The notes under the pieces were generated by a model that had not been told where the DNA came from, ran no database searches, and worked only from the letters and a program-made list of their open reading frames with translations. The position numbers and the translations under genes were made by a program. Below are positions 5,220 through 63,234 of a stretch of 64,000 nt of DNA, piece by piece. Numbering within the stretch: the stretch's first letter is position 1; every line of letters starts with the position of its first letter. The DNA is from Nocardia pseudovaccinii NBRC 100343 (GTDB lineage Bacteria > Actinomycetota > Actinomycetes > Mycobacteriales > Mycobacteriaceae). Location: the NCBI RefSeq assembly GCF_001613225.1, contig NZ_BDBY01000017.1:1-64000 (forward strand), written 5' to 3'.

Positions 5220-5223
5220 GTAT

Positions 5224-7485: not shown

Positions 7486-7486
7486 C

Positions 7487-8347: not shown

Positions 8348-8532
8348 GCCGACTCGCTGAGTTGATGCTGCAGCAGGACGAGCAGATAGCCGATCACGGC
8401 GATACCGGCGACGCCGGTGCTGAGCACGGCGAGCCAGAGCCCGAACCGCAGCACCGGATTGACTTTCATACGCCCCCCGAGGATCTTGACGCCGATCACC
8501 AAGATGTCGATGAGCCAAACCAAGATCATCAT
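8344..8532 (-). CDS. Small two-helix membrane protein in mce operon leader
   Basis: The predicted product has 62 residues and is almost wholly membrane-embedded: one hydrophobic segment at about 2-18 (MILVWLIDILVIGVKIL) and a second at about 31-54, joined by a short basic loop (GGRMKVNP). I do not recognise the family. The start overlaps the stop of the preceding small gene (TGATG) and its stop overlaps yrbEA (ATGA), so it is embedded in the coupled mce reading unit. This overlap at both ends is the main evidence that it is a real gene. A role as an accessory or assembly subunit of the YrbE permease is inference only. Confidence 0.75.
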   Translation of the reverse strand: MMILVWLIDILVIGVKILGGRMKVNPVLRFGLWLAVLSTGVAGIAVIGYLLVLLQHQLSESA

Positions 8533-18197: not shown

Positions 18198-18416
18198 TCA
18201 GTTGGCGTCAGGTTGCATCGCGGTGATGAGTGAATTGGGACGCATATCCAGCCAGTGGGATTCGACGTACTTCAGGCAGGAGCGACGCGCGGCCGCGCCG
18301 TAGGCGATGGTCCAGCCGCCGGGAACGGCGGCGAAGATCGGCCACAGGGAGTGCTGGCCCTCGGCATTGGTCAGGACGTAGAACTGGGCGTCATCGTCGT
18401 CGAACGGGTTGATCAT
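18198..18416 (-). CDS. mbtH: MbtH-like protein
   Basis: The 72-residue protein carries the MbtH signature almost complete: NAEGQHSLWP, VPGGWTIAYG, then CL near the middle and SHWLDMRPNSL at the end, with the conserved Trp residues present. MbtH proteins bind NRPS adenylation domains and are often needed for their folding and activity. The gene starts 26 bases behind the NRPS stop with a good ribosome site (GGAAGG, eight bases upstream), so it is the last gene of the NRPS operon. A longer frame to 18578 lies inside the NRPS thioesterase and was rejected. Confidence 0.96.
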   Translation of the reverse strand: MINPFDDDDAQFYVLTNAEGQHSLWPIFAAVPGGWTIAYGAAARRSCLKYVESHWLDMRPNSLITAMQPDAN

Positions 18417-18442
18417 CTGGTCGGCCTTCCTGGTGGGAGAGT

Positions 18443-21400
18443 TCAGGCCCGGTCGGCGTGTGCCAAGACATTCGTCAGGACGTGGCCGATGCGGGCGAGG
18501 GCGGATTCGGAGGTCATGCGCCAGTGCGTGGCCTGGACGGCATGGTTGTGCACGGTGCCGTCGACCGCGTCGGACCACCCGGCCGCGCCGGTGGCCCCGG
18601 TGGGGTCGTCGAGTGCGGCGGTGAAGTAGACGAGATTGCCCTTGTAGGGCCGTGGCCGGTAGCGAGTGATGAGTTCCAGTGAGTGCGTGCCCGCGTCGAG
18701 GAGTCGGCCGAGCCGGTCGAATCCGAAGGATGCGAACGGTTCCGGAAGTTCGGCGATGCGCCGGGCGAGCCGAGTGCGATCGAGTTCGGTATCGGTGTCG
18801 TCGGCCTGTTCGCCGAGCAGCCCGCCTAGCAGATCGGCCACCGGCACCGTCGCCGTCTCGTCCACCGTGATGTGCAGCGGGCTGTCCATCATGGCCAGCA
18901 ATGCGACATGTTGGCCCTGGTCCTGTAATTGATTCGCGACGGCGTGTGCGAGTACGCCGCCGAGCGACCAGCCGAGCAGGTGGTAGGGGCCCTCGGGCTG
19001 TACCGCGCGGATTTCCCGGACGTAGTGTCCGGCCCAGTTCTCGATGGAATCCGGCAGCGGTGCCGCGGAATTCAGTACCGGGGACTGGATGCCGTAGATG
19101 CCGCGTTCCGCGTCGATATGTGCGGCCAGACCCGCGAACGACCAGGCGACGCCGCCGACCGGGTGGATGCAGAACAGCGGTTCACGAGAGCCTCCGGGGC
19201 GCAACGGTAGTAGGACATCGAAGGCCGCTTGCGCGTCGACGCGGCCGCGGCCGCAGCGGTGCAGTTCCAGTTGTGTGATCAGGGCCGCGGGTGTCGGCGC
19301 GGCGAACAGCCATACCACCGGGATCTGTTCGGCGAGTGCGGTACTCAGCTGGGCTGCGAGTCGGGTGGCCAATAGTGAATTACCGCCACATTCGAAGAAG
19401 TTGTCGTCCATGCCGATTCGCTCGACCTCCAGCGACTCGGCGAAAACTGTGCAGACCAGCAGCTCCAACTCCGTTTCCGGAGCGCGGAATTCTCGGGTGC
19501 CCGACTCGGGCTCTGGCAGTGCGCTCCGGTCGACTTTGCCATTGGCGTTGAGCGGCAGGGCATCCAGTTGGATCAGCACCGCCGGAACCATGTAGCTCGG
19601 CAGGGTATCGGTCAGTGCGGATTTCAGCGCGTTCGGACCGATCGGTTCGGTGGCGGTGAAATACCCGACCAGCAGGTCACCGTGATGTGCGATGACAACG
19701 GCCTCGGCGACCGCCGGACGTCCGCGCAGCGCGTGCTCGATTTCGGCGAGTTCGATGCGGTAGCCGCGCACCTTCACCTGGAAGTCACGGCGCTCCACGT
19801 ATTCGAGGTTGCCGTCCGCACCCCAGCGGACCATATCCCCGGTTCGATACATCCGGGTGCCGGGTGCGCCGAACGGGTTGGCCACGAACCGTTCCGCACT
19901 CAGGTCGGGCTTTCCGTGATAGCCGCGGGCCAGCTGCGCGCCGCCCAGGTACAGCTCACCGGTCACACCCGTCGGCACCGGATGCAGCCGGTCGTCGAGT
20001 ACGTAGACCTGGTTTCCGGATTCGGGTGTGCCGATGGGGACGACCGTCTGGCGGATACCGCCGTCGGTGCGGAACCGCGTCACCGAGACCGCCGCCTCGG
20101 TGGGGCCGTATAGGTTATCGATCCTGGCAGTGGTACATGCGCCGATCCGGTCGACGGTCGCGGCGGGCAGTGCCTCGCCGATGACGAGCAGTCGCCGCAG
20201 CGACCTCGGCAGTCGCTGGTCGCCGCTGGCCTCGGCCAGCATGGCCAGCAGCGCTGGCACCAGCGTCACCGTGGTGACCGAGGCGCGCCGGATCAGATCC
20301 AGCACGCTCGCCGGATCGCGCTGTGCGCCTTGTGGTGCCAGTACCACTCGGGCCCCGGCGCGCAAGGCCCACCAGAATTCCCAGATTGAGAGATCGAAGG
20401 CGGCCGAGGTCATCAGCAGCGTGGCGTCGTCGGCTTCGAGCGCGTATTCCGTTTGCAGCCAGTCCAATTGGTGTGCAACCGCCGCGTGCGGGACTGCGAC
20501 GCCCTTCGGGGTTCCGGTCGATCCCGAGGTGAAGATGACATAGGCGGTGTGTGCGGGAGTCAGCGTGGACGGCCGCTCCTCAGCACGAATCGGACTGCTG
20601 TCGAGGACACCGGCGGCAACCGAGATATCCAGCACCACATCGTGATCCGCCACCGACGCGGGCAGCATCGGCCGCTCGGCCGAGGTCAGCACCAGTGCCG
20701 GGTTCGCGGCGGCGAGTACGCTCGTGGTCCGGTCGAGCGGATGGGCCGGATCGAGCGGGACATACGCGCCGCCCGCGGTCACCACCGCGTACATTGCGAC
20801 CAGCAGGTCGACACTGCGCGGAATGGCCAGGGCCACCAGCGATTCCGGGCCGATGCCGCGGCCGATCAGCGCGCGGGCGAGCCGGTTCACCCGCGAGGAG
20901 AACTGGCCGTAGGTGACCGTTACGGCGTCATCGACAATCGCTACCGCATCGGGCGTCTCGGCGACCTGCGCCTCGAAGGCCGCGATGAGGGTAGTGGGCG
21001 TGAATTCGTGTTCGGTCCGATTCCAGGACACCAGCATCCGGTCGCGTTCGGCGGTGTCCAGTAGCGCCAGATCTCCGACCGGCAGCCGCGGTTCGGCACA
21101 GATGGCGGCCAGCAGGCGTTGCAGTCGTCCGGCGAGACCGGCGACCGTGGCTTCATCGAACAGTGCGGTGGCATAGGTGATCGATGCGGCCATGCCTGCC
21201 GCATTTCCATCCGGGCCGTAGCGGTCGGTGACGACCAGGTGCAGGTCGAATTGCGATACCTCGGAGTCGAAATCGACCGCGGTGGCGGTCGATCCGTCCA
21301 GTGCGAATTCCGCCTCGGCCTGGTTGTGGAAGGAGAAGCCGACCTGGAACAGCGGATGCCGTGCGGTCGAGCGCTCCGGATTCAGCACCTCGACCAGCCG

Positions 21401-24400
21401 CTCGAACGGTACGTCGGCATTGGCGAAGGCGGCGACATCCGCGGCGCGCACCCGATCCAGGAGTTCGGTGAAACCGGTAGCCCCGTCCACCTGGGTACGG
21501 AGCACGAGCGTATTGACGAACATGCCGACCACATCGTCGAGTTCGGCCGCACCACGGCCCGCGACGGGAGTACCGACGGCGATATCGGCGCTGCCGGACA
21601 GGCGGGCCAGCAGTACCGCGAAGGCGGCGTGCAGGACCATGAACAGTGTCGCCCCGGTGTTCCGGCCCAAATCCGCCAATCGCGCCTGCATATCGGCGTC
21701 GATGGTGAAGTCGACATGCCGACCGCGGGTGGAGACGATGGCGGGTCGGCGGCGGTCGGTGGGAAGCGTGAGTTGTGCGGGCAGTCCGGTGAGGGTTGCG
21801 GTCCAGAACCCGTGTTGCTGAGAGATCAGCGAATCCGGATCGTCCTCGCTGCCGAGCAGATCCCGTTGCCAGCGGCTGAAATCCGCGTATTGCACCGGCA
21901 GCGGGGTCCACTCCGGCGCAATGCCGTGCCTACGTGCGGCATAGGCGGTCATCACGTCACGTGCCAGCGGTACCAATGACGAGCCGTCCGCGGCGATATG
22001 GTGCACGACCACTACCAGCACATGCTCACCGAAGTCGGCGGGACCGGCCACCGGACGGAACAGCCTGGCGCGCAATGGAACCGAGTCGGTGACGTCGAAT
22101 CCGCCACCGACGAAGTCGGCGACCGCGGAGCTCAGATCGTCGACGGGCACCGGAATCGAGGCCAGCACCGGCACTCCCGCGTCGGCCATCGGCAGAACAA
22201 CCTGTACCGGTCCGCATTCGCGCTGCGGGTAGACGGTGCGCAGCACTTCGTGGCGTTCGACCACGTCGCTGATGGCCGCATTGAGTGCCGCGATATCGAG
22301 ATCACCGGTCAGTCGTACTGCCAGTGGGATGTTGTAGGCGGTGGACTGGCGGTCGAGGCGGTTGAGGAACCACATGCGCTGCTGTGCCAGCGAAAGCGGG
22401 ATCGGATCGGTGTCGGCGCGCCGGGTCAGTGCCGGACGTGCATGCGCCGCAGTGGTGTCGAGAGCGGCGGCCAAGGCCGATACGGTCGGGTTCTCGAAGA
22501 CAAGTCGCACGCCGATCGAGGTCTCCGATCGAGCGCTCAGCCGTGCGGCCAATTGTGTTGCGGTCAGGGAGTTTCCGCCGACGGCGAAGAAGTCGTCGTC
22601 GAGACCGACCGCTGCCAGGCCGAGCACCTCGGCGAAGACCTCCGCCACGATCCGCTCGGCGGCCGTCTCCGGTGCGCGGAAGGTCGCGGTACGGAACTCG
22701 GGTGCGGGCAGTGCCTTGCGGTCCAGCTTGCCGACCGGGGTCAGCGGGATCTCGTCGAGGAGCATGATGGCGGCGGGCACCATATAGGCGGCCAGTGAGC
22801 GCGCGGCGAAAGCGGTGAGCTCGGCGGTGTCGATCGATCGGTCAGCTACCACATACGCGACCAGCGAAACCGAACCCGCGGCATCGGTGTGCCCGATCGT
22901 CACCGCGAATTCGACGCTCTCATGGGCCGAGAGCACCGCGTCGATTTCACCGAGTTCGATGCGCTGACCGCGCACCTTCACCTGATGGTCGGCACGTCCG
23001 ACGTACTGGATCGCGCCGGATGCGGTCCAGCGCACCAGATCACCGGTCCGGTACAGCCGCCCGCCCGCTGGACCGTAGGGATCGGCGATAAAGCGATCCG
23101 CCGTGAGTCCCGGCCGCGCGTGATATCCGCGAGCCAGACCCGGCCCGCGCAAGTACAGTTCGCCGGTCACCCCATCCGGGACGGGTTGCAATCGAGTATC
23201 GAGCACCATCGCGGACATGCCGTGAACGGTGGTGCCCAAATCGAATTCGCCGGGCCGCAGCGGCGCGCTGATATGGGTGATGATCGTGGTCTCGGTCGGG
23301 CCGTAGGTGTTGTGGAACGCACGCCCGGTTCCCCAGCGCCGCACCACATCCGGGCCGTACGACTCACCTCCGACGGTCAGGTGGGTGAGTTCGGGGAGTT
23401 CGTCGGGATCCAGTGTTTGCAGCACGGCCGGGGTGATGAAGGCGTGGGTCACCCGTTGATCCCGAATGAGCGCGGTCAATTCCGCGCCGCCGTAGACACC
23501 GGCCGGGGCGATCACCAGTGCGGCACCTGCGGGCAGGGCCAGCAAGAGTTCGAGCATGGAGGCGTCGAAGCTGGGCGATGCCACGTGCAGGACGCGCGAT
23601 GTCGCGGTGACCTGGTAGCGATCCCGCTGTGCGCGCGCCACTCCCGCGAGGCCGCCGTGGGTGGCGATTACGCCCTTCGGGGTGCCGGTCGAACCCGAGG
23701 TGTAGATCATCCACGCGGGATTGGCCACGCGGACCGGACGTGTCAGCTCATCGGGCGCAATGGGTGCCGCGCTCGAATGCCGCATGCGGGCCGCCGTGGC
23801 CGGTGCGTCGAGCACCAGCCATTCGGCGGCGTCGGGCAGCGTCTGGCGGCACGTAGTGAGCGTAAGGCCCACGGCGGCACCGGAATCCGACAGCATGTAT
23901 GCGATTCGATCTGCCGGGTATGTCGGGTCGACGGGGACGAAGGCCGCACCGGTCTTGGCCACCGCCCAGATCGCGAGCATGGATTCGGCGGAGCGCGGTA
24001 TGGCCACGGCGACGAAGTCCTCGGCGCCGATGCCGTGGCCGATCAGCATTCTGGCCAGCCGGGACGAGTGCTCGTCCAGTGCGCGGTAGGTCAGCGCACC
24101 GTCGTACGAAATCAGCGCCAGGGCATCGGGATTCATCGCCACGGCTGCGGCCATCAGTTCGGCGAGGGTATGCGTCGGCATCGGTTCATCGCCCCGCCTG
24201 GCCAGCAGTTCGGTCCGTTCGGCCGGAGTGAGCACATCGACGGCCCCGATCGGCGCGGACGGATCGGCGGTGAGTGCGCCGATTACCCGACCGAACCGTC
24301 GAAGCAGTCCGGTGGCGGTTGTCTCGTCGAAAAGGTCTGTCGCGTAGTCGAGTTCGATTGCCAGGTGACCTCCGATGTCGAGTTCTGCCGCGACGGTGAA

Positions 24401-27400
24401 CTGGAGATCGAAACGCGCCACCGGTTCATCGAATTCGACAGCCGTCAACTCCAGGCCCGGCAGCGTGAATTCCTCCGTGCCGGTATTCGGATAGCTCAGC
24501 GCCACGGTCAACAGCGGATGCTCGGACTGCGAGCGCTCGATGCCGAGTTCATCGACAACGCGCTCGAACGGCACGGTCGCATGGGCGAACGCGGCCAGAT
24601 CGTTTGTTCTGGTCTCGTCGAGCAGATCGGTGAACGAGCGGGCCGGGTTCGGATATGTGCGCAACACCAGGGTGTTCACGAACATGCCGACCAGGTCGTC
24701 CAGCGCCGCCGCGCCGCGGCCCGCGACCGGGGTGCCGATGGCGATATCGCCTGAGCCCGACAGCCGGGCCAGCAATACGGCAAGTGCGGCGTGTACCACC
24801 ATGAACGGTGTCGCGTTGTGACGCGCGGCAAGCTCGTAAATGCGGGCGCCGACCCCACCGCCGATGCGCGCGCGCACCGTGCCGCCACGCTTGGACGCGA
24901 CAGCTGGGCGTGGCCGATCGGTGGGCAGAGCCAGTTCTTCCGGCAGATCCCGCAGCGCTTCGGTCCAGTAGGTGAGTTGTTCGGCCGCAACCGAATCCAG
25001 CTCGGCCGTCTGCCAGAGCGCGTAATCGGCGTACTGTGCGGCGAGCTCCGGCCACACCGGGGTCCCCCCGACTACTCGGGACAGATAGGCCGACAACAGG
25101 TCTCGCAGCAGTGGCCCCATCGAATAACCGTCGGCCGCGATGTGGTGCAGCACGGCGACGAGCACATGGCTGGTCGCGTGCTCCCGCAGCAGTATCGCGC
25201 GCACCGGCACCTCGGCGGTGATATCGAAGCCGGTGCCGAGGAAGTCGGCGATGCGCTCGTCCACCGAGCCGGGGGTCTCTACCACGAGGGATACCGGGGC
25301 CGGTTCGGCGGGCAGGATCACCTGGTGTCCGATGCCGTTCGCATCGGCCGGATATACCGTGCGCAGTGCCTCGTGACGGGCGATCACATCCGCGAACGCG
25401 GCACACAGCGCCGCCTCGTCCAACTCGCCTGCGATGCGCACCGCTACCGGGATATTGTGTGCGGCCGAGTCCGGGTCCAGCCGGTTGAGGAACCACATGC
25501 CGCGCTGTACCGGCGCGAGCGGAATGCGCTCGGGGCGTGGCCCGGAGATCAGTGGTACGACCCGGTCATGTGCGTGCGCGGCCAGGCGTGCCGCGAAAGC
25601 GTGCACTGTGGGCGCCTCGAACAGCAACCGCACGGGCACCCGACCGAGCCGCTCGCCGAGCCTGGCCAGGACTCGGGTGGCGATGAGTGAGTTGCCGCCG
25701 AGGTCGAAGAAGTTGTCGTCGGCACCGATCGGCGACCGCGCGAGTACGGCCTCGAATGCCTCTGCCACCAACCGCTCGGCCGGGGAGACCGGCGCACGGT
25801 AGGCGACGCTGTCGAATACCGGCTCCGGCAGCGCCTTTCGATCCAATTTGCCGGAAGCGTTGAGCGGGAAGGCAGCCAGCACGACGATCCCCGATGGGAC
25901 CATGTACGACGGAAGCGCATCCACCGCGGCCGCCAGAACCGCCGCGCGCACATCTTGTGCATCGCTCACCACATAGCCGACGAGCCGGTCCCCGACCACG
26001 CTGGCCGCGGCCTGCGACACACCGGGCACCGCCGCGAGTACCGCCTCTATCTCACCGAGCTCGATGCGCTGGCCGCGGAACTTCACTTGGAAGTCGGTGC
26101 GGCCCAGGTATACGAGTTCTGGAATGACGCCACTGGTGTCCCAGCGCACCAAGTCGCCGGTGCGGTACATGCGTTCGCCCACGGGTCCGAACGGGTTCGC
26201 TACGAATCGGTCCGCCGTCAGATCGGGCCTGCCGTGATAGCCGCGGGCAAGTTGAGTGCCCGCGAGATACAACTCCCCCGCGACCCCCGGCAAAGTCGGC
26301 CGTAGCCGGGAATCCAGCACGTACACCTGGCTGTTCCATTCCGGATTGCCGATCGGCATGACGGTGCGTTCGATTTCACCGGTGACATCGCGGTAGGTGA
26401 TGCTCACCGCGGCCTCGGTCGGGCCGTACAGGTTGTGCAGGCGCGCGGAACTCACCGCGCCGAAGGCACGGACGGTCTCGGCGGGCAGTGCTTCGCCGAT
26501 GACGAATACCGTGCGCAATGTGTCGAGGTCGGCGGAGGTTTCGACATGTCTGGCGAACTCGCTCAACATCGATGGCACGAAATCGGTGACGGTCACGCCG
26601 TATTCGGCAATTGCCCTCGCGAGGTACCGGGGATCGCGGTGGCCGTCCGGAGCGGCCAGCACCAGCGTCGCACCGATGCGCAGCGGCAGGAAGTAGCCCC
26701 ACAGCGAGACATCGAAGCTGGTCGCGGTCTTTTGCAGGTATACGTCTTCGGCGATCAGCTGGTACTCGGACTGCATCCACGTCATCTGGTTGACGATCGC
26801 GGCGTGGGAGACGCTGACGCCCTTGGGTTTTCCGGTCGAACCAGAGGTGAAAATCACGTAGGCCGGGTTCTGCGGGTGAATCGGCGCGGTCCGCTCGTTC
26901 ACCGCGATCGGGTCGTCGGCATAGTCAACCAGTGGAACGGTATCGACGCACACTGTCGCCCCGGCATATCCGAAGTCCTGACGATCACGCTCGGTGGTGA
27001 GCAGTGCGATAGGTGCGGCGTTGTCGATGATGTGAGCGATGCGCTGGGCGGGATGGTCCGGGTCGATCGGCACATAGGCGCCGCCCGCCTCGAGCACCGC
27101 GTACATGGCGACCACGAGATCGGTCGAACGCCGAATCGCCAATGCCACCAACGACTCCGGCCCGACACCGGTCGCGATCAGATATCGAGCCAGCTGGTTG
27201 GTCCTGCGGTCCAGTTCGCCGTAGGTCATGGCGGTTCCGTCGAAGACCAAGGCGATATCGTCCGGTGTCGCGGCGGCCTGTTGCTCGAATTCGTCGAGCA
27301 GCATTTCCGCGACGAACGCGGTGTGTGCGGAGTCGTTCCACGCGGTCACCACCCGTTCCAGCTCACCGGTCTCGAACAGATCGATATCGCCGACAACCTG

Positions 27401-30400
27401 TTCCGGATGGTCGATCACCGCGCCGAGCAGGCGAATAAAGCGTGCGCCGAACGTCGCGATGGTCGACTCGTCGAACAGGTCGGTGGCGTAGGTGAAGCGC
27501 AGCGCGTCATCGGCGACGGTCACTTGCAGATCGAATCGTGTCGTCTCGTAGTCGATCTCGTATTCGGCGACCACGATGCCCGCCAGTTCCACCGATACGG
27601 GAGCGAGATTCTGGAAGAACAGCGCGACCTGGAACAGCGGATGCCGTGCCTCGGAGCGCGGCGGATCCAGCACCTGCACCAGCCGCTCGAACGGCACATC
27701 GGCATTGGCGAAGGCATCCAGGTCACCGTCGCGGACCCGGCGCAGTACAGCGGCAAAGGAGTCCGTCCCCGCGACCTCGGTGCGCAGTACCAGTGTGTTG
27801 ACGAACATGCCGACGAGGTCGTCGAGGGCGGCGGCACCGCGACCCGCGATCGGTGCGCCGATGGCGATGTCATCGGTGCCGGACAGTCGCGCGAGCAAGG
27901 CGGCCAGCGCGGCATGGACGACCATGAACGGGCTGACGTCGTATCGGGCGGCGATGGCGGCTATGCCGTCGCGGATGGCGGCACCGAGCCCGATGGTGGT
28001 GCTCGCGGCGGCGTGGCTGGCAATGGCGGGACGTGGCCGATCCGAGGGCAGATCGAGCTGAGCGGGCAACCCGCCGAGCACGCGAGTCCAGTAGCGCAGT
28101 TGCTGTGCGGCCACCGATTCCGGATCGTCCTCGGCTCCGAGGATCTCACGTTGCCAGAGGGCGTAATCCGCGTACTGCACACACAGGTCTGTCCACGTCG
28201 GTGCGGTGCCGGTGGCCCGTGCGGCGTATGCGTTCGCGATATCGCGCGCCAGTGGAGCCATCGAGAAACCGTCCGCCGCAATGTGGTGCACCACGAGGAC
28301 GAGTAGGTGCTCGCGATCCGACAGGGCGGCCAGGCCGATGCGCACTGGTATTTCGGTAGTGACGTCGAAAGGTGTGGCAACCAGATCCACCAGTGCCGAC
28401 GAATCCAGCTCGAGAATTTCGGGCTTCGCGTCCAGAATCCGTTGGAAGCCGGTGCCATCGACGTCCGGATATACGGTGCGCAGGGTTTCATGGCGGGCGA
28501 CGACATCGGCCAGCGCGGCGGCGAGCGCATCGGTGTCGAGATCTCCGGTGAGCCGGATCGCGACGGGAATATTGTTCACCGTCTCGCCGGGATCGAAGCG
28601 GTTGAGGAACCAGATCCGTTGCTGTGCGGGGGAAAGCGGAATCAGGTCGGGGCGTCGGCGCGCGGTGAGCTCCAGACGACCGCCGGTACCGGTGAGCAGG
28701 GCGGCGCGGGCGGCTATTCCGGCAACGGTCGGTGCCTCGAACATCATCCGCACGGGGACTTCGGCATCCAGCGCGGCACCGATCCGGGCGGCCAGCTGAG
28801 TGGCGATCAGTGAATTGCCACCGAGTGCGAAGAAGTTGTCGTCGGCGCCGATTCCCTCGATGCCGAGCAGTTCGCCCATGATCTCGGCAACGGTCTGTTC
28901 GGTCTCGGTCGAGGGAGATCGGTAGGTGGCGGTCTCGAATACGGGAGCGGGCAGCGCGGCGCGATCGAGCTTGCCGGAGGTATTGAGCGGGAGAGCATCG
29001 AGCACCACGAAGGCCGACGGAACCATATAGGCGGGCAGTGCGGCGTCCAGTTCCGCGCGCACGTCGTCGATATCGACTGCGGGATCGGCCACCAGATAGG
29101 CGACCAACTGATCGCCTGGTCGCTCGTCGCTACGCACCACGACGACGGCCTGGTCGATGACATCCAGTGCGGTGAGCGCGGATTCGATCTCACCGAGCTC
29201 GATGCGCAACCCGCGCAGCTTCACTTGGAAGTCGGTGCGGCCCAGGTACTCCAGCTCACCGCTCGCGGTCCACCGGACGAGGTCACCGGTGCGATACATC
29301 CGCTCCCCCACACCGCCGAGGGGATTCGCGACGAAACGTTCAGCGGTCAGCTGCGGCCGACGTATGTAGCCGAGGGCCAACTGCTCACCCGCGAGGTACA
29401 ACTCACCGGGCACACCCACCGGCACCAGCCGCATCCGTGCATCCAGCACCAGCAATCGGGTGTTGAATACTGGCTTGCCGATCGGCACCGACTCCGCATC
29501 GACATCGGTCACCTCGTGGAAGGTGACATCGACCGCCGCCTCGGTCGGCCCGTACAGATTGTGCACGCGGGCACCGGTCAGCGCACGGGCCCGCTGCGCG
29601 GTCGGTGCGGGCAGGGCCTCACCTGAGGCGAACAGCGCTCGCAGCGTGACGCATTCGCGCGCCCGGGGTTCCGCTAGGAACACCGCGAGCATCGAAGGCA
29701 CGAAATGCGCGACGGTGATTCCTTCATCGGTGATCAACCGCGCCAGATAGGCCGGATCCCGGTGACCGTCCGGCCGCGCGAGCACCAATCGCGCTCCGAT
29801 CTGCAACGGCCAGAAGAACTCCCAGACCGAGACATCGAAAGTCGCCGGGGTCTTCTGTAATACCGCGTCGTCGATGTGGAGCCCATACTCGGACTGCATC
29901 CACACCAGGCGATTGACAATCGCGGCATGTGACACCGCGACGCCCTTGGGACGGCCGGTCGAACCAGAGGTGAAGATGACATACGCGGGGTGCTCCGGCA
30001 ACAGCACGCCGAGACGATCCTCTGTGGTCAACGGCGCGGGTGAATATCTCGTCAGCTCCAGACGATCGATCCGTACCTGGCGTGCCGTAACAGCTTCCAG
30101 ATCGGTGCCAGCGGTCAGCACCCACACCGGACGCGCTGTCTCGAGCACATAGGCGATCCGGTCGGCCGGATGGTCGGGGTCGAGCGGCAGGTACGCGCCA
30201 CCGGCGACAGTGACCGCGTACATGCCGACCACCAAGTCGAGCGAGCGCCGCATGCCGAGCGCGACAACCGAATCCGGGCCTACGCCATGCCCGACCAGCC
30301 ATCGCGCCAGGCGATGGACCCGGCCCGCGAACTCGGCATACGACAGCGTCGCGTACCGACTCGATGAGGGGTGGTGGTCGGGCGACGGGTGGGCCGGACT

Positions 30401-33400
30401 CCGCCCCTCGAACGTGACGGCGGTCGCGTCGGGTGTCCGCAGTACCTGTTCCTCGAACAGCGAAACCAGAGTCTGCGACCGGTTTACCGCGAACGACGTT
30501 TCGTTCCAACGATCGAGCAGGGACAGCTCGTTCCGGTCCAGCAGCTCGATATCGCCGACCCGTATGGCGGAATCGGCGACCACCGCCTCGAGCAGGCGCA
30601 CGAAGCGGGCCGCGAACGATTCGACTGTCGCCCGCTCGAACAGATCCGTCGCGTAGCGCATGGCGGCACGCAGCGCGCTGTCGCCCTCCGCGAGTTCGAG
30701 CGCGAGGTCGAACTGGGCGACCTGATTGTCGATGGGATACGCGGCGACCTCGAGCCCGGGTAGGCGCAGCACCGTATCGTCACGGTGCTCGAAGGTGAGC
30801 AATGTTTGCACGATCGGCGAATGCGCCTGCGAACGAACCGGATTCAGCTCGTCGACGAGTCGTTCGAACGGCAGGTCGGCATGTGCGAATGCTCGGATAT
30901 CGGTGGCACGCACCCCGGCGAGCAGTTCGGCGAAGGTTGCCCCGGCCGTGACCTCGGTGCGCAACACCAGCGTGTTGACGAACATGCCGACCAGATCGTC
31001 CAGCGCCGCCTCGGCCCGGCCCGCGACGGGAGTGCCGATGGCGATATCGTCCACGCGGGCCAGGCGGGCCAGCAGCGCCGCGTAGGCGGCGTGCACCACC
31101 ATGAACGACGACACCCCGTGTTTGCGGGCCAGATCCGCGATCGCGGCGGTCAGTTCCGAAGTGATGGCGAACTCGACCGCAGCGCCACGACCAGATGCCA
31201 CGGCGGGGCGCGGCCGATCGGCGGGCAGTTCGAGCACCGGGGCGAGTCCGTCGAGTTCGGTGCGCCAATGCGCGATCTGGCGGGCCAGTACGGACTCGGG
31301 ATCGTCGGCCGAGCCGAGCACGTCGTGCTGCCACAGTGTGAAGTCCGCGTACTGGACCGGCAGCGGCTGCCACTGCGGCGCAATACCTTCGCTGCGAGCG
31401 CTGTATGCCACCATCAGATCCCGCGCCAGCGGAGCCGTCGAGACACCGTCGGCCGCGATGTGGTGCACCACCACAACGAGCACATGATCGTCGGAAGCGA
31501 CCCGGAACAGCACGGCACGCACCGGTATCCGGGTGCGCAGATCGAAGCCGATCCCGGCGACGCCGACAACCGCCGCGGTCAGGTCGGATTCGGCGATATC
31601 GACCCGCTGCAGCTCCACGGTCGATTCGGTCACCAACTGTGCGGGACCGACGCTGTCGGCAGGGAATACGGTGCGCAGCGACTCGTGCCGAGTGACAACA
31701 TCACCCAACGCGGCACGCAGCGCTGCTTCGTCCAATGCACCGGTCAGGCGGATGGTGATCGGAATGTTGTAGACGGCCGATTCCGGATCGAGCCGGTTCA
31801 GCAGCCACATCCGAGTTTGGGCCAGCGACAATGGAATACGCTCCGGACGATCTCGCGTCACCAGCGCGGGCCGCACGACATCGGCGCGGGTCACCCGCGG
31901 AGCCAATTCGGCCACGGTCGGTGCTTCGAAGATCTCGCGCACGGTCAGCGCGCTACCGAACGCCGCGTTCGCTCGAGCCACGAGGCGCATGGCCAAAAGT
32001 GAATTGCCACCGCGCGCGAAGAAGTCGTCATCCGCGCCGATCCGCACGCCTGCGATCAGGTCGGCCATCAGTGCGGCGAGTACCGATTCGGTGCCCTCCC
32101 GCGGTGCACGGAATTCCGTTGCGGTACCAGCGACTTCGACCGCTGGCAGCGCCGCGCGGTCGAGTTTGCCAACCGTGGTGAGCGGCATCTCGTCGAGCAC
32201 AACCAACTGCGCGGGCACCATATATGCGGGCAGATACCCACGCACCTGCGCGAGTACCGCATCCGAGGACAGTTCCGCACCGCTGATGTAGCCGACCAGG
32301 CAGTCATAGCCCGAGGTGTCGCGCGTCGATATCACCGCGGCATTCGTCACGCCCGTCACCCCGGCCAGCGCCGATTCGATCTCTCCGAGTTCGATCCGCT
32401 GACCACGCAACTTGATCTGGAAATCATTGCGGCCCAGGTAGATCAGGTCGCCACCGCGGTTCCAGCGCACCAGATCGCCGGTGCGGTACATCAGCCTGCC
32501 AGGCACACCGAACGGATCGGCCACGAAGCGCTCGGCGGTCAGTCCGGCGCGTCCGTGGTATCCGCGGGCCAGTTGGTCGCCTGCGAGATACAGCTCGCCC
32601 GTGACACCGACCGGGACCGGGCGCAACCGTGCGTCCAGCACATAGGCGCGGGTGTTCCAGCACGGACGTCCGATGGCGACATCATGGCCGGAGTCGGCGT
32701 CGGTGAATTCGTGATAGATCGCCGAGATCGCCGCCTCGGTCGGGCCGTACGCGTTGTGCACCGCGCCGCCGACATGTTCGCGAATCGCGGCGAGCAGGTC
32801 CGGCGTGAGCGCCTCACCGCCGCAGTGCAGATGTCGAAAGGAGCGCAGCGCATCACCCATGCCCTCACCGATGAGCGCCGCGAGTACCGATGGCACGTAT
32901 TCGGCGATGGTGATGCCGTGTTCGCGCAGCAGTCCGGCGAAATACGCCAGGTCGAGGTGGCCGCTCGGACGGGCGATCACCAGCGGTGCACCGACCGCGA
33001 TCGGCAGGAAACACTCCCACACCGAGACATCGAAGGTGAGCGGGGCACGCTGCAGGATGCGGTCGGCGGCGGTGACGCCGTAGCGGAATTCGAGCCAGCG
33101 CAGCTGGTTCATGATGGCGCGGTGGGTGACCGCGACGCCCTTCGGACGGCCCGTCGAGCCGGAGGTGAACAGCACGTACGCCGTATTGTCGCGGCGCAGT
33201 GGCGCTCTGACGCTCGGCGCGGCGTCGAAGCCGCTGAGGTCGGTGAGATCGACGACACCGATGTCACCGAGGTCGGGCAGTTCCGCGCCGCCGACGGCCA
33301 ACACCAGAGCCGGTGCGGCACTGTCGATCACCTGCGCGATCCGTTCGGCCGGATGGGCCGGATCCACTGGCAGGTAGGCACCGCCCGCGCGCACGATCGC

Positions 33401-36400
33401 GAATATGGCCACGAGCATGTCGACAGATCGCAGCGCGGCGAGTCCGACGATCGTCTCCGGACCGACACCTGCCGAAATGAGCCAGCGCGCAAGGCGATTC
33501 ACCTGGGTTTCGAGTTCCGCGTAGGTCACCGACGTGTCCTCGAAGATCACCGCGACGGCATCGGGTGTCGCGGCCACACGGGCCGTCAGCAGATCGTCGA
33601 GGGTCTCGGAAGGCAGTAGCCGCGCGGTGGCATTGCGATCCGAGAGAAGCAGTCCGCGTTCTGCCACCGACATCAACTCGACATTGCCGACGAGGGTTCG
33701 CGCGTCACGCACCATGACGCGTACTACCCGCTCGAAACCCGCAAGGAACCCATCGGCGGTTGCCTTGTCGAAGAGGTCCAGCGCGTAGTGCAGATGCACA
33801 TCGATGCCGTCGGCCGCGCCGTCGGTGTCGTAGTGGTCGGTCAGCGTCCAATCCAGATCCAGCTGGATCGGTGCGGGTCCGATATCGAGCGCGGCAATAT
33901 TCAAACGGTGCAGCCGGAAGTCCGGCTTGGACTGGTTCTGCAATGTCATCGCCACCTGATACAGCGGCGCATGTGCCTGCGAGCGAACGGGATTCACTAC
34001 ATCGACGAGCTGTTCGAAGGGCACGACGGCGTGATCGAAGGCCGCCAGATCCGCTGTGCGGACGGTCGCCAAGAGCTCACCGAGCGTTGCGTCGGCGCGC
34101 ACCTCGGTACGCAGCACCAACGTATTGACGAACATGCCGACGAGCTCGTCCAGGGCTTCGTCACCGCGTCCGGCGACCGGCGTACCGATGACGATGTCGT
34201 CGGCAGCGCTCAGGCGGCTCAGTAGTACCGCGAGCGCGGCGTGCAGCACCATGAACGGGGTGACCCGATGGGCGGCCGCCACATCCTGTATGCCCTGGTG
34301 CAATACCCGATCGAGACGGCCGGTGATGGCACCGCCGCGGTTCGAGGCGACCGCAGGGCGCGGCCGGTCCGTGGGCAACGTCGAAACCTCGGGAACGCCC
34401 GCGAGCCGACCGGTCCAGTACCGCAGCTGATGGGCCAGCGGCGAACCCTTGTCATCGGCCCGGCCCAGCGCATCGCGCTGCCAGATCGCGAAGTCCGCGT
34501 ACTGCACGGCGAGCGGACTCCAGGACGGTGCGACGTCCGCGCAGCGAGCCACATAGGCGGTCGCCAGATCCCTGGTCAGCGGCGCGAAAGACCATCCGTC
34601 GGCGGCGATGTGATGCACGACGAACAGCAGTACGTACACCTGCTGGCGGGACCTGCTGGCACCGTCGTCGATTCGGAGTAGCCGGACGCGCAACGGAACT
34701 TCGGTTGTGACATCGAATCCGGTCTCGGCAGCGGTGGCGACGAGTTCGGGTAGCTCGGATGTCGACACCGCACGAGCGACGAGTTCCACCAGCTTGGTCC
34801 CGGCGGGCAGCACCACCTGCGTCGCGGCGCCGTCGTGTTCGGGATAGATGGTGCGCAGTGTCTCGTGCTTGGCGATGACATCGGCAATCGCGCGTTCCAG
34901 TGCGGGCACATTCAGCACACCGGTGAGGCGCAGCGCGAAGGGGATGCTGTATCCGCCACTCGCGGAGTCGAATCGGTTCAGGAACCACATGCGCTGCTGG
35001 GCAATCGACAGCGGAATCGGCTCATGGCGATCCTGAACCGTCAACGGCGGCAGGGCCGGAGGTGGCGCCTGCTGCTCGACCGTGACCCGCCGCGCCAGCT
35101 CGCGCACTGTCGAGGCGTCGAAGATGGTGCGCACGGGTACATCCGCGCCGGTCGCCCTGGTCAGCCGGGCCGCGAGTTGCGTGGCGATGAGCGAATTGCC
35201 GCCGAGGGCGAAAAAGTCGTCATCCGCGCCGACCAGGTCGATACTGAGCAGCGCGCTGAATGTCTCGGCGACAAGGGTTTCCGCGAGATCGCTCGGCGCG
35301 CGGAATTCGGCAGCCGCAAAAGCCGGTGCGGGCAATGCCTTTCGGTCCAGCTTGCCGGAGGTCGTGATCGGGAATTCATCCAAGACGACAAAGGCCGACG
35401 GAACCATGTAGGCGGGCAGCCGCCGCGCGACTTCGGCTCGAACGCTATCGATATCGAGTTCACTACCCGCCACCAGGTACGCGACCAGCTGGTCGCCGTG
35501 GTCGTCGCGAACCACGACGACTGCCTGCGCGATTCCGGCAACCGACAGCAACGCCGACTCGATCTCACCGAGTTCGATCCGCAGGCCGCGGACCTTCACC
35601 TGGAAGTCGGTGCGGCCGAGGAATTCCAGCACACCCCGCTGATCGGCCGCACGCCAGACCACCAGATCGCCGGTGCGATACATCCGCGCACCGGCCGGAC
35701 CGAACGGATCGGCCACGAACCGCTCACCGGTCAGATCGGCCCGGCCGAGATAGCCGCGGGCCAGCTGAGCTCCGGCCAGATACAGCTCCCCGGGTACACC
35801 GACAGGCACCCGACGCAACCGCGCATCGAGCACATACACACGGGTATTCCAGATCGGCCCGCCCATCGGCAGCGGACCGCTATCAGCAGCGGTCACCTCG
35901 TATGCGCTGACCTCGACCGCCGTCTCGGTGGGCCCGTACATGTTGTGCACCCGCGCGCCGGTAACCGCGCGTGCCCGCTGCGCGATGGTGGCGGGCAGCG
36001 CCTCGCCCGAGCAGAACACGTGCCGCAGTGTGGGCACATCGATATCGTCCGCGACGAAGACAGCGAGCATGGACGGTACGAAATGCGCGACCGTAATCGA
36101 CTCGCGCCGAATCAGCTCCGCCAGATACCCCGGATCCTGATGACCATTCGGACGAGCCACCACCAGCCGGGCGCCGACCTGCAGCGGCCAGAAGAACTCC
36201 GGCACCGAAACATCGAAGGTCACCGGCGTCTTCTGCAGCAGCGCATCGGTGCCATCGAGCGCGACATGCGTCGACTGCATCCACAGCAGCCGGTTCACGA
36301 TGCCGCGGTGGGTCATCACGACACCCTTGGGCCGCCCGGTCGAGCCCGAGGTGAAGATGACATAGGCGGTATTGGCGGCCCGCAGCGGCGCGCACCGATC

Positions 36401-42400: not shown

Positions 42401-43695
42401 GTGCAGTGTCGCGCCGCTGATATCGCGGAAGGTGGCCGCGGTGGCGGCCGGTAGCGCCTCGCCGGAGGCGAATACCAGGCGCAGGGTCCGCGCCGCACTT
42501 TCGATCCGCGGTTCGGCCACGAATACCGCGAGCATGGAAGGTACGAAATGCGCGACGGTGACGCCGCGTTCGGCGATCGTGCGCGCCAGATATGCCGGAT
42601 CGCGATGACCATCCGGCGCCGCGATCACCAGTCGCGCACCGACCTGCAACGGCCAGAAGAATTCCCATACCGAGACGTCGAAGGTGAACGGCGTCTTCTG
42701 CAGCACCACATCGTCGCCGCGTAGTCGATACAGCCGCTGTCGCCACCGCAGGTTGGCCAGAATCGAACGGTGCGATACCGCGACACCTTTCGGACGTCCC
42801 GTCGATCCCGAGGTGAAGATGACGTAGGCCGTATTGTCCGCAGACGGTCGCGGGCGGTCATCGATCGACACCGCTGCCTCGACGGTGTCGAATTCGTCGA
42901 TCCGCAGTACCGGGATACCCGCTCCGAGCTCGGGCTGGTCTTGGGTCGTGGTGAGTACCAGGACCGGTGCGGCGACCTCGAGCACGTAGCCGATGCGTTC
43001 GGCCGGATGCTCCGGATCGATCGGCACATACGCTCCGCCCGCCTTCAGGATCGCGTACATGCCGACCAGCAGGTCGAACGAGCGTCGGACGGCAAGCCCC
43101 ACCAGGCTGTCCGGGCCGACACCGAGGTCGATCAACCGCAGCGCGAGGGCGTTCACTCGGCCGTCGAACTCCGCATAAGTCAGCGTCGCGTAGCGACTCG
43201 ATGAGGGGTGGTGGTCGGGCGACGGGTGGGCCGATGTCGCGCCCGCGTACTCCAGGGCGACCGCGTCCGGTGTCCGGCGCACCTGTGCCTCGAATTCGCT
43301 GACCAGGGTCTCGATCGGCGCGAATATCGACGGCAGCACGTGCGCCGCCGCCGTCAGGGCGTCATCGAGCAGTCGCTCCAGCACGGTGCCGAGTGCGCCG
43401 TCCCCGGACTCCAGCAGGGCGGGCAGCTGGCTGGAGACTACGACCGATACCAGTGCGTCGGCACCGAGACCGCCACCCATCGCCTCGTCCAGCACCATGA
43501 TCTCGGTGGCCAGCAGACCGTAGGTGATGCTGGTCCCGTCGTGCCGCAGGGCGACCCGCTCCGGATCCAATTCGGCGACCTTGTCGATCAGGATGGGGAG
43601 ATCGTCGAGTCCGTACGCCCGGCGCAGTGCCGAATGATCGTATGCGGCAATACGATTGCCGAGTTTGCTGGATGCGACCGATTCTGCCTGGGACA

Positions 43696-43696
<1 letters not shown>
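18443..43696 (-). CDS. NRPS, second protein of the assembly line (A6-T6, modules 7-13, thioesterase)
   Basis: The 8,417-residue synthetase begins with a degenerate A-domain-like fragment (about residues 1-125). Then come A6-T6, seven complete C-A-T modules (7-13) and a thioesterase. Every T domain has the GGxSL phosphopantetheine site, and every A domain has the terminal GKxDR Lys. No epimerization, methylation, ketosynthase or reductase domain is present. By-eye pocket readings give Ser for modules 6 and 10; the others are unassigned. The start ATG 43696 overlaps the first NRPS stop by one base (TGATG), so the two proteins are made together and act in order. Unusual points are short in-frame DNA insertions, a HisHis motif ending in DA in C8, and Pro at pocket position 239 in A8. 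Confidence 0.97.
18446..19260 (-). other. NRPS terminal type I thioesterase domain
   Basis: The last 265 or so residues form an alpha/beta-hydrolase thioesterase with the nucleophile elbow GWSLGG (about 18957-18975), an Asp in LAMMDSPL (about 18880-18905) and a likely catalytic His in VQATHWRM (about 18516-18546). It should release the 13-residue peptide by hydrolysis or cyclization; the sequence does not say which. The five hydroxy residues offer several points for ester closure. Confidence 0.88.
19265..22420 (-). other. NRPS module 13: C, A (unassigned), T
   Basis: C13 spans about 22410-21020, A13 20990-19530 and T13 19490-19270. The pocket reads DLWTLILVSK, close to module 5. The T site reads ECGGNSL. 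It hands the finished chain to the thioesterase. Confidence 0.78.
22420..25540 (-). other. NRPS module 12: C, A (unassigned), T
   Basis: C12 spans about 25530-24200, A12 24170-22720 and T12 22670-22460. The pocket reads DALFTGTIIK. Like A4 this domain is of a separate lineage (FDASMLELLLALPAG; ITHISAP), so it was probably acquired independently of its neighbours. A non-polar substrate is likely; its identity is not known. Confidence 0.78.
25540..28660 (-). other. NRPS module 11: C, A (unassigned, Asp278), T
   Basis: C11 spans about 28650-27320, A11 27305-25845 and T11 25790-25590. The pocket reads DVWDFILVSK, identical to module 7, with the same FDVSLWGYFLPLR stretch and VKFRGQRIEL loop. Confidence 0.78.
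28660..31855 (-). other. NRPS module 10: C, A (Ser), T
   Basis: C10 spans about 31845-30470, A10 30462-28965 and T10 28920-28710. The pocket reads DVWHFSLVDK (Ser). A10 carries the same 17-residue insertion as A6, encoded by 30344-30395. Confidence 0.83.
30344..30395 (+). repeat. Dispersed in-frame element, copy B
   Basis: This 52-base segment in the A10 coding region matches copy A at 51 of 52 positions, at the same place in the A domain (before the YAEFxGRV helix), and adds 17 codons. Confidence 0.75.
31855..35035 (-). other. NRPS module 9: C, A (unassigned, Glu278), T
   Basis: C9 spans about 35022-33640, A9 33600-32155 and T9 32095-31880. The pocket reads DVWEHGAISK; Glu278 suggests a basic substrate such as Orn, Dab or Lys. 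The T site reads ARGGNSL. Confidence 0.78.
35035..38300 (-). other. NRPS module 8: C (unusual His motif), A (unassigned), T
   Basis: C8 spans about 38290-36840, A8 36795-35345 and T8 35295-35085. C8 has HHIAADA instead of HHxxxDG and a Gly/Arg-rich insertion (GGGGRATGGPSRR) encoded by the inverted copy of the dispersed element. The A8 pocket reads DVPHFSMVEK: a Ser-like pocket with Trp239 changed to Pro and two more changes. Confidence 0.78.
37736..37776 (-). repeat. Dispersed in-frame element, inverted copy D in C8
   Basis: The reverse complement of this segment matches copy A at about 35 of 40 positions, including GGGGTGGTGGTCGGGCGACG. It lies in a C domain, not an A domain, in the opposite orientation, and is read in a different frame as a Gly/Arg-rich loop just before the LPVQYADY motif. 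Confidence 0.65.
38300..41490 (-). other. NRPS module 7: C, A (unassigned, Asp278), T
   Basis: C7 spans about 41478-40085, A7 40075-38605 and T7 38560-38345. The pocket reads DVWDFILVSK, the same as module 11. The acidic residue at 278 suggests an amino-bearing side chain, by analogy with ornithine codes. FDVSLWGYF replaces FDVSVWEFF. Confidence 0.78.
41490..43696 (-). other. NRPS degenerate A-like head, then A6 (Ser) and T6
   Basis: The first 125 residues (43696-43320) again resemble a broken A-domain N terminus (LPILIDKVAELDPERVALRHD, ITYGLLATEI). A true A domain follows (43310-41790; pocket DVWHFSLVDK, Ser) and then T6 (41740-41540). A6 carries the 17-residue insertion encoded by the dispersed element at 43181-43232. 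Confidence 0.82.
43181..43232 (+). repeat. Dispersed in-frame element, copy A
   Basis: This 52-base segment in the A6 coding region differs from the copy at 30344 at a single base. Read in the NRPS frame it encodes PSPDHHPSSSRYAT, a Pro/His/Ser-rich surface loop that most A domains of these proteins lack. It contains GTCGGGCGAC, a small inverted repeat. Confidence 0.75.
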
Positions 43697-61359
<17,663 letters not shown>

Positions 61360-61371
61360 CAGAGCCTCCTT

Positions 61372-61673
61372 GTTCGGCGTAAAAAAGCACGCCGAACGCA
61401 TTCAGGCAGCACGAATAAGCCGCTGCGGCAACACTGTTCAGCGTTGACACATGGCTTCGACGCCACCACAAGAAGATTCGGCGAATGCGCGGGGCATGAC
61501 GACACCCGCGCGGGATCGAAACAGATTGCGCCCCGCGTGCGCCTAGCTCTCGAGCACTCCTCCAACGTCGCTGCCGCGGTGCGGGCGCCGCGGCGGTGTC
61601 AGCTACATCACACGGATGTGATCCGCATTGCGAACACTAGGCGCTTCGTTAATAAAAAGGAACTTTTTGCACT
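61372..61673. other. NRPS operon upstream region
   Basis: About 300 bases lie between the terminator of the GAF regulator and the NRPS ribosome site. No gene is seen. The left part is GC-rich; the right end (61650-61683) is a markedly AT-rich patch. A palindrome lies at 61607-61622. The operon promoter must be here; I cannot name its boxes with confidence. Confidence 0.5.
61607..61622. promoter_or_regulatory. Palindrome upstream of NRPS operon, candidate operator
   Basis: ATCACA-CGGA-TGTGAT is a perfect inverted repeat about 250 bases upstream of the NRPS start, between the AT-rich patch and the coding region. It resembles binding sites of dimeric regulators (the half-sites are like an inside-out CRP site). 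Either neighbouring regulator or an unlinked one could bind here. Confidence 0.45.
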
Positions 61674-63146: not shown

Positions 63147-63234
63147 TTGCCTTTCTTTCCGCCCCAAACTGTACCGGCGCGCATAACTCGGACAGGGGCG
63201 GTTGCCTTCGTTTGTCCGCCAGGTCACACCACAT

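What the first reader, a model, noticed from the sequence alone, without database searches (positions are those of the whole stretch)
18198..61359. Thirteen-module NRPS operon for a Ser-rich acyl peptide I cannot match to a known product
Seen: 13 C, 13 A, 13 T domains, one thioesterase and mbtH in three coupled or near-touching genes. By-eye pocket codes give Ser-x-Ser-Thr-x-Ser-x-x-x-Ser-x-x-x. Known: DVWHFSLVDK and DFWNIGMVHK are published Ser and Thr codes. Inferred: the product is an N-acylated 13-mer carrying five hydroxy residues. I recall no described Nocardia peptide (peptidolipins, nocobactins) of this length and pattern.
Basis: partly seen in the sequence, partly recalled or inferred. 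Interest (0 to 1): 0.75.

Follow-up and report, generated by a model that had tools for sequence, protein, structure and literature searches.

The report
Nocardia lipopeptide synthetase with unusual subunit junction
A giant two-protein Nocardia enzyme that should make a serine-rich fatty peptide belongs to an assembly line first noted in 2014 whose product is still unknown, and its two halves meet through a matched pair of truncated enzyme fragments that may be an undescribed way of plugging such machines together.

Summary
NRPS A (43696-61401, -) and NRPS B (18443-43696, -) carry 13 C, 13 A and 13 T domains plus one thioesterase, with mbtH 26 bases downstream. Pocket codes give Ser-x-Ser-Thr-x-Ser-x-x-x-Ser-x-x-x. 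The first C domain is closest to an acyl-CoA starter C domain, so an N-acyl 13-mer is the best reading. As a family it is not new: Komaki et al. 2014 (PMC4035055) described a two-gene 'Ser-rich 13 aa' NRPS (#36) in four Nocardia species, role unknown. In 13 Nocardia loci read (own included, chosen by a starter-C match) the regulator and mycofactocin neighbours are the same; seven of 13 keep all 13 codes within four letters.

What looks undescribed is the joint. NRPS A ends in C plus a ~95-residue degenerate piece of an A domain (T); NRPS B starts with a sister piece (H) before a Ser-loading A. C-T|H-A recurs in 15 of 16 junctions fetched from other genera. T and H persist in 14 opened Nocardia genomes where the subunits are unlinked (1.4-1.8 Mb apart in three). 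I read T/H as a docking pair (inferred, about 0.6). Against: five genomes keep H though NRPS A has decayed.

The parts
43696..61401 (-). NRPS A, 5,901 aa: starter C, five A-T, four elongating C plus terminal C6, then tail fragment T; no TE
   Evidence: ends in TGATG overlap with NRPS B
60022..61314 (-). C1, starter condensation domain (approximate limits)
   Evidence: best PDB matches are RzmA starter C (7c1k, 6.6e-67), ObiF1, CDA C1, EntF (RzmA named as starter C)
58222..60022 (-). A1-T1, code DVWHFSLVDK (Ser) (limits approximate)
55012..58194 (-). module 2 C-A-T, code DVWSFALVHK (unassigned) (limits approximate)
   Evidence: C2 closest to DhbF and PCP-C didomain structures
51832..54984 (-). 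module 3 C-A-T, code DVWHFSLVDK (Ser) (limits approximate)
48652..51804 (-). module 4 C-A-T, code DFWNIGMVHK (Thr) (limits approximate)
45472..48624 (-). module 5 C-A-T, code DLWHLILVSK (unassigned) (limits approximate)
44092..45414 (-). C6, terminal condensation domain of NRPS A (its A partner is on NRPS B)
43699..44082 (-). T: tail fragment, degenerate N-terminal piece of an A domain (core about 43732-44010); proposed C-terminal docking half
18443..43696 (-). NRPS B, 8,417 aa: H, then A6-T6, seven C-A-T modules, thioesterase
43319..43696 (-). H: head fragment, sister of T; proposed N-terminal docking half
41537..43309 (-). A6-T6, code DVWHFSLVDK (Ser), the A half of the split module (limits approximate)
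   Evidence: Ser-type code at 15 of 15 junction A domains read in other genera
38357..41509 (-). module 7 C-A-T, code DVWDFILVSK (unassigned) (limits approximate)
35087..38299 (-). module 8 C-A-T, code DVPHFSMVEK (Ser-like) (limits approximate)
31937..35059 (-). module 9 C-A-T, code DVWEHGAISK (unassigned), T motif FARGGNS (limits approximate)
28727..31909 (-). module 10 C-A-T, code DVWHFSLVDK (Ser) (limits approximate)
25607..28699 (-). module 11 C-A-T, code DVWDFILVSK (same as module 7) (limits approximate)
22487..25579 (-). module 12 C-A-T, code DALFTGTIIK (unassigned) (limits approximate)
19337..22444 (-). module 13 C-A-T, code DLWTLILVSK (like module 5) (limits approximate)
18503..19180 (-). 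type I thioesterase, chain release
   Evidence: Pfam PF00975, 1.9e-29
18198..18416 (-). mbtH, A-domain helper
61791..63227 (-). GAF-domain regulator just upstream; found in 13 of 13 Nocardia loci searched (own included; the others 81-98% identical); regulator of either the NRPS or the mycofactocin genes

Best explanation
This is the Nocardia two-subunit, 13-module lipopeptide synthetase (Komaki line #36 family). Shown: domain content, order, codes, and conservation at the same chromosomal place. Inferred: a fatty acyl-CoA is condensed by starter C1 onto Ser; the chain grows to N-acyl-Ser-x-Ser-Thr-x on NRPS A, is handed at C6 to a Ser loaded on NRPS B (A6-T6), is extended to 13 residues with L residues (no E domain seen; dual C/E not excluded), and is released by the TE as an acid or as a lactone through one of the hydroxy residues. 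Because module 6 is cut between C and A, the two proteins must be held together there. The best candidate is the pair of sister fragments T (end of A) and H (start of B), each a degenerate copy of the first ~95 residues of an A domain that ends before the ATP loop (motif A3), acting as a C-terminal/N-terminal docking pair. Docking itself is inferred, not shown.
For: Synthetase. Family in print. Same locus: MftF and the GAF regulator in 13 of 13, MftG in 10 of 13, MbtH in 10 of 13 loci searched, own included. T and H: related to each other (33% identity over 90 columns, hhalign 99%, 3e-18) more closely than T to A domains (17%, 95.5%, 1e-8); H is 29% identical to T and 13-28% to A starts; no Pfam match even at E 10. 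T at the end of NRPS A in 13 of 13 and H at the start of B in 11 of 13 Nocardia loci; in the other two B is elsewhere and has H. In 16 junctions from eight other genera, chosen for a strong T hit, C-T ends a frame in 16 and H-A opens the next in 15 (seven genera), the A always Ser-type (15 of 15). 94 of 101 matching genus genomes have exactly two hits, T and H in those placed. 14 of 17 genomes with a diverged H set apart from NRPS A were opened: B is unlinked (1.36, 1.82 and 1.49 Mb in three, other contigs in eleven, with NRPS A followed by a different gene in all 14), yet T and H are kept, with median dN/dS 0.21 (T) and 0.25 (H) against 0.21 (C6) and 0.165 (A6) in 12 genomes. T rows (29; support 97/67) and H rows (40; 96/95) each group in the tree; the A after H is one clade across genera (32 rows, 100/99).
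Against: No binding, no mutant, no product was measured, and no complex could be predicted. Five genomes (G121, G001, G090, G011, G010) keep a well-scoring H although NRPS A beside it has decayed and no T is found, so H is not kept only for T, or the loss is recent. T-like pieces also lie inside four single-chain 11.3-kaa NRPSs between C and A, where no docking is needed. In the unlinked clade a decayed A-A gene beside NRPS A also shows dN/dS 0.24 (nine genomes), so constraint alone is not decisive. One of 16 other-genus junctions has T but no H in the fetched stretch (L146). Fold support for H is weak (pLDDT 71.7; Foldseek best E 0.29; VIA Z 4.6). Eight modules (seven distinct codes) have no assignment; six of those codes were searched and are not in the paper library. 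No acyl-activating enzyme was seen among the 19 neighbours scanned with Pfam.
Confidence: 0.7

Rival explanations
1. T and H are inert scars of the event that split an ancestral synthetase between C6 and A6; the subunits meet through C6/A6 surfaces alone.
For: Both are degenerate A pieces; T-like pieces occur inside single chains; H outlives T in five genomes.
Against: Both ends kept in seven of the eight other genera looked at and in Nocardia genomes with dN/dS near that of the catalytic C6; T and H each form one group; kept when genes are unlinked.
Confidence: 0.3
2. In the genomes with unlinked subunits (not the window), NRPS B is a paralogue that serves another starter subunit, so the unlinked state says nothing about T/H.
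For: B there has seven modules and other codes (six read), and a decayed A-A gene stands beside NRPS A.
Against: Only two hits, T and H, per such genome at 1e-6; no other frame with a C, A, T or H match on either strand in the 31-kb stretches around B, which reach 5.5-6.7 kb upstream of it, in the six read; B's first A domain is sister to the linked Nocardia B.
Confidence: 0.25
3. The window cluster is a siderophore synthetase rather than a lipopeptide synthetase (unassigned codes being hydroxamate-type residues, aryl starter).
For: Ser-rich peptides occur among siderophores (recalled); C1 also resembles EntF (4.7e-43).
Against: C1 is closer to an acyl starter C domain; no N-monooxygenase, aryl-acid ligase or iron-uptake family among the 19 neighbours scanned.
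Confidence: 0.1

Closest known systems
Komaki 2014 NRPS line #36 (nfa50630-50620 homologs; PMC4035055)
   Same: Two-gene NRPS, 13 residues, Ser-rich, in Nocardia; N. farcinica (L038) and N. otitidiscaviarum (L050) carry a relative of the first subunit; G046, whose single 6,194,645-bp contig fits N. cyriacigeorgica GUH-2 as I recall its size, has the same 13 codes but for two letters
   Different: Gene names of the paper could not be matched base by base here; T/H is not mentioned in the parts read
Maennle 2020 GCF 6 (PMC7413640)
   Same: Conserved large Nocardia NRPS of 7-13 modules, product unknown
   Different: Described with an invariant nitropropane dioxygenase, metallopeptidase, esterase, epimerase, enoyl-CoA dehydratase neighbourhood; the window has mycofactocin genes on one side and, farther off, mce genes on the other
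Rhodococcus putative lipopeptide NRPSs, e.g. NRPS-2 (PMC5550956)
   Same: C-starter domains, Ser/Thr-rich predictions, conserved in most rhodococci, product unknown; paired adjacent hits in a Rhodococcus and a Rhodococcoides genome fit T and H (not opened)
   Different: Identity of NRPS-2 with the T/H-bearing loci was not tested
NRPS docking domains: COM, PAX, beta-hairpin (review PMC9113145, passages read)
   Same: Paired elements at the C end of one subunit and the N end of the next
   Different: Those described in the passages are short (helix, helix-hand, helix bundle, hairpin), at E/C or PCP/C junctions for COM and PAX; T/H are ~95-residue A-derived pieces at a C|A junction inside a module
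A-like remnant near the TE of glycopeptide NRPSs (PMC8949500, passage read)
   Same: Precedent for a degenerate A piece kept in an NRPS
   Different: Not at a subunit junction and not paired

Membership tests
Komaki #36 Ser-rich 13-module NRPS | Two NRPS genes with 13 modules in Nocardia | tested here: met
   9 of 13 loci read are linked 13-module pairs
Komaki #36 Ser-rich 13-module NRPS | Many Ser-type A domains | tested here: met
   four Ser codes plus one Ser-like and one Thr
Komaki #36 Ser-rich 13-module NRPS | Orthology to nfa50630-50620 themselves | tested here: inconclusive
   N. farcinica first-subunit relative at 70% (L038), but the named strain's genes were not at hand
Komaki #36 Ser-rich 13-module NRPS | Lies near the #35 12-module NRPS | tested here: inconclusive
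   in G046 a 14,582-aa single-frame NRPS has its starter about 92 kb away, its modules not counted; in the window genome the contig ends at 76,406
Maennle GCF 6 | Invariant neighbours (nitropropane dioxygenase, metallopeptidase, esterase, epimerase, enoyl-CoA dehydratase) | tested here: not met
   of 19 neighbours scanned one is an NAD epimerase 8 kb past mbtH and three are serine hydrolases (beta-lactamase-type, lipase, alpha/beta); no nitropropane dioxygenase, metallopeptidase or enoyl-CoA hydratase family among them
N-acyl (lipo)peptide synthetase | Starter C domain | tested here: met
N-acyl (lipo)peptide synthetase | Acyl chain on the product | not testable with these tools
   needs chemistry
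Known NRPS docking-domain classes (COM, PAX, beta-hairpin) | Their sequence or fold in T or H | tested here: inconclusive
   no Pfam family at E 10; fold hits for H are starts of A-type enzymes, weak; T not searched alone
NRPS docking domain (function) | Specific binding between subunits | not testable with these tools
   genomic pattern only

The most novel reading that the evidence does not exclude
T and H are an undescribed class of NRPS docking domain, made from a duplicated and degenerate adenylation fragment, which joins the C and A halves of one split Ser module across the family (Nocardia, Rhodococcus and relatives) and lets two giant subunits find each other even when their genes lie more than a megabase apart.
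Probability: 0.55. Interest if true: 0.65.

Novelty: new variant of a known kind. Interest (0 to 1): 0.48.

Why it matters
The Ser-rich acyl peptide is made by a widely kept NRPS of Nocardia, yet its product is unknown, so the conserved codes give chemists a defined target. If T/H dock, they offer a new, larger connector placed between C and A, and genomes with unlinked subunits provide a ready natural test.

Tried and rejected
Substrates of the eight non-Ser/Thr modules: six of their seven distinct codes were searched in the paper library, none found (on one paper also empty); I leave them unassigned. GCF 6 of Maennle 2020 was considered and set aside on neighbourhood. Import of NRPS B from another genus in the unlinked clade: suggested by the short T/H tree, rejected by the 550-residue A-domain tree, where those B subunits are sister to the linked Nocardia ones. 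The conserved C-terminal 'DSEG' of NRPS A as a docking peptide: rejected, since in the window its codons hold the ribosome-binding site (GGAAGGA) of NRPS B. The first dN/dS script failed on an empty row after printing T alone; the rerun used the 12 of 14 genomes with all four regions (G065 and G097 dropped; nine genomes for the decayed gene). The one-hit genomes G019 and G067 (weak hits) and the set-apart genomes G107, G134, G033 were not opened. The VIA second look at the C6-T model filled with C domains and did not test T; T was not searched by itself. C-domain subtypes (LCL/DCL/dual) were not resolved. H-versus-A profile scores were cut from the output.

Literature limits: ten searches of open-licence papers, mostly seen as listings of the best 10-20; 'not in print' means not met there. 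Papers: PMC4035055 abstract and section 9 parts 1-2 of 3; PMC7413640, PMC12153302, PMC5550956, PMC9113145, PMC8949500, PMC10212144 passages only; PMC12283262 searched for codes, no hit.

Full report
What is there. The window is from a 9.9-Mb genome of a Nocardia (starter region 95% identical to N. vinacea, 90% to N. anaemiae). Two giant genes on the minus strand, 43696-61401 and 18443-43696, overlap by one base, and mbtH follows 26 bases later. NRPS A has six C, five A and five T domains; NRPS B has seven C, eight A, eight T and a thioesterase (Pfam lists one more C stretch in NRPS B than the motif count, which I take for a split match, and one T fewer at its strict threshold).

Starter and order. 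The first C domain matches the starter C domain of rhizomide synthetase best, then ObiF1, CDA C1 and EntF (RzmA is named as a starter C, with C8-CoA in some entries); an inner C (module 2) matches DhbF and PCP-C didomain structures. No E domain was seen. Predicted product: acyl-Ser-x-Ser-Thr-x-Ser-x-(Ser-like)-x-Ser-x-x-x. Modules 7 and 11 share a code, and 5 and 13 nearly so. That DVWHFSLVDK means Ser and DFWNIGMVHK means Thr is established knowledge, recalled, not a call.

Family. In 13 Nocardia loci fetched (own included, chosen by a starter-C match), module 1 has the Ser code in 13 of 13, and nine of 13 are linked 13-module pairs; seven of these nine (own included) keep all 13 codes with 0 to 4 letters changed. 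Others differ: G104 by 36 letters in eight modules (with Thr and Ser exchanged at 3 and 4), G053 by 16 letters in six modules; G116 has at least 16 modules, G080 has 11, and in G020 and G112 the second subunit is elsewhere. Neighbours are shared: MftF and a GAF regulator in 13 of 13, MftG in 10 of 13, MbtH in 10 of 13, and mce permeases in 5 of 13 within the fetched 60 kb. NCBIfam names MftF, MftC, MftB and MftR2 above their cut-offs, and MftG, scanned only in part, below it. Komaki 2014 describes line #36 as two genes for Ser-rich 13-residue peptides in four Nocardia species with roles to be investigated. I conclude the window holds a member of that family; the paper's own genes were not compared base by base.

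The junction. Past C6, NRPS A runs on for about 100 residues that look like the start of an A domain and then stops (T); NRPS B opens with a similar piece (H) before its real A6. T and H resemble each other (33%, hhalign 99%, 3e-18) more than T resembles A domains (17%, 1e-8), and match no Pfam family at E up to 10. In the alignments they end before the ATP loop (A3). Predicted structures give an alpha-beta-beta-alpha start and a long last helix for both (C6-T mean pLDDT 88, H 71.7); the H core falls on the start of A domains, but weakly (E 0.29, Z 4.6).

Spread. H-type hits occur in 101 of 148 genomes of the genus at 1e-6; 94 of the 101 have exactly two hits, which are T and H wherever I placed them, and seven have one. 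T-type hits occur in 176 of 251 genomes of the family (25 of 31 genera) at 1e-5, but weak ones are ordinary A domains. I fetched 16 split junctions from eight other genera, chosen for a strong T hit: 16 have C-T at the end of a frame and 15, from seven genera, have H-A at the start of the next; the A is Ser-type in 15 of 15. Four single-chain 11.3-kaa NRPSs have a T-like piece between C and A, in modules with DQKN/DMKN-type codes and, once, a Thr code. In an order-wide sample 3 of 150 genomes matched, all in the same family. T rows (29; 97/67) and H rows (40; 96/95) each group together in a tree of 87 rows, with the warning that 108 columns are few. The A domains behind H form one clade of 32 rows (100/99). 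So the split was probably made early in the family and kept.

A natural test. In 17 of the listed genomes a diverged H (E 1e-18 to 1e-23) lies apart from NRPS A. I opened 14: NRPS A ends in T and is followed by a decayed A-A gene and not by NRPS B, while NRPS B with H lies apart (G020 1.36 Mb, G074 1.82 Mb, G057 1.49 Mb; other contigs in eleven). In the six B genes read in full, B has seven modules and ends in a TE, and no other frame in the 31-kb stretch, on either strand, matches C, A, T or H. T and H are both kept, dN/dS 0.21 and 0.25 in 12 genomes. This is what docking predicts. Against it, five of the seven one-hit genomes were opened and keep H although NRPS A has decayed to a 305-554-aa frame without T, and the decayed gene beside NRPS A has a similar dN/dS (0.24, nine genomes). 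I therefore give docking about 0.6.

Verdict. The paired A-derived junction pieces were not met in ten searches of the open library (of these 43, 48, 50 and 90 bear on docking), and are the part worth following.

Noticed in passing
L003:2379-4157 (window contig beyond 64000): One 592-aa frame matches both mycofactocin MftB (81-163) and MftC (193-529), an apparent mftB-mftC fusion.
   Followed up: no
G020, G112, G074, G057, G095, G034 and eight more genomes (loci L172-L203 and L091-L093, L109-L111): A Nocardia clade has the second subunit at an unlinked place, with seven modules and other codes in the six read, and a decayed A-A gene beside NRPS A.
   Followed up: partly
L208-L212 (G121, G001, G090, G011, G010): NRPS A has decayed to a 305-554-aa frame while NRPS B keeps a good H.
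   Followed up: partly
listing, e.g. G046:C1:5337396-5338757, G073:C34, G115:C1: A second Nocardia NRPS group encoded as single open frames, many of about 12,000-17,000 aa, whose starter C is about 50% identical; perhaps Komaki line #35.
   Followed up: no
L148-L151: Single-chain 11.3-kaa NRPSs carry a T-like A fragment between C and A, before A domains with DQKN/DMKN-type pocket codes and once a Thr code.
   Followed up: partly
window 35087-38299: Module 8 has proline at pocket position 239 in an otherwise Ser-like code (DVPHFSMVEK); exact in six of the 13 loci, with one or two letters changed in G060 and G053, and at module 9 in G116.
   Followed up: no
window 1020-8518: An mce operon (two YrbE/MlaE permeases and several Mce proteins) lies downstream; its permeases are found at the same side in five of 13 loci within the fetched stretch.
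   Followed up: no
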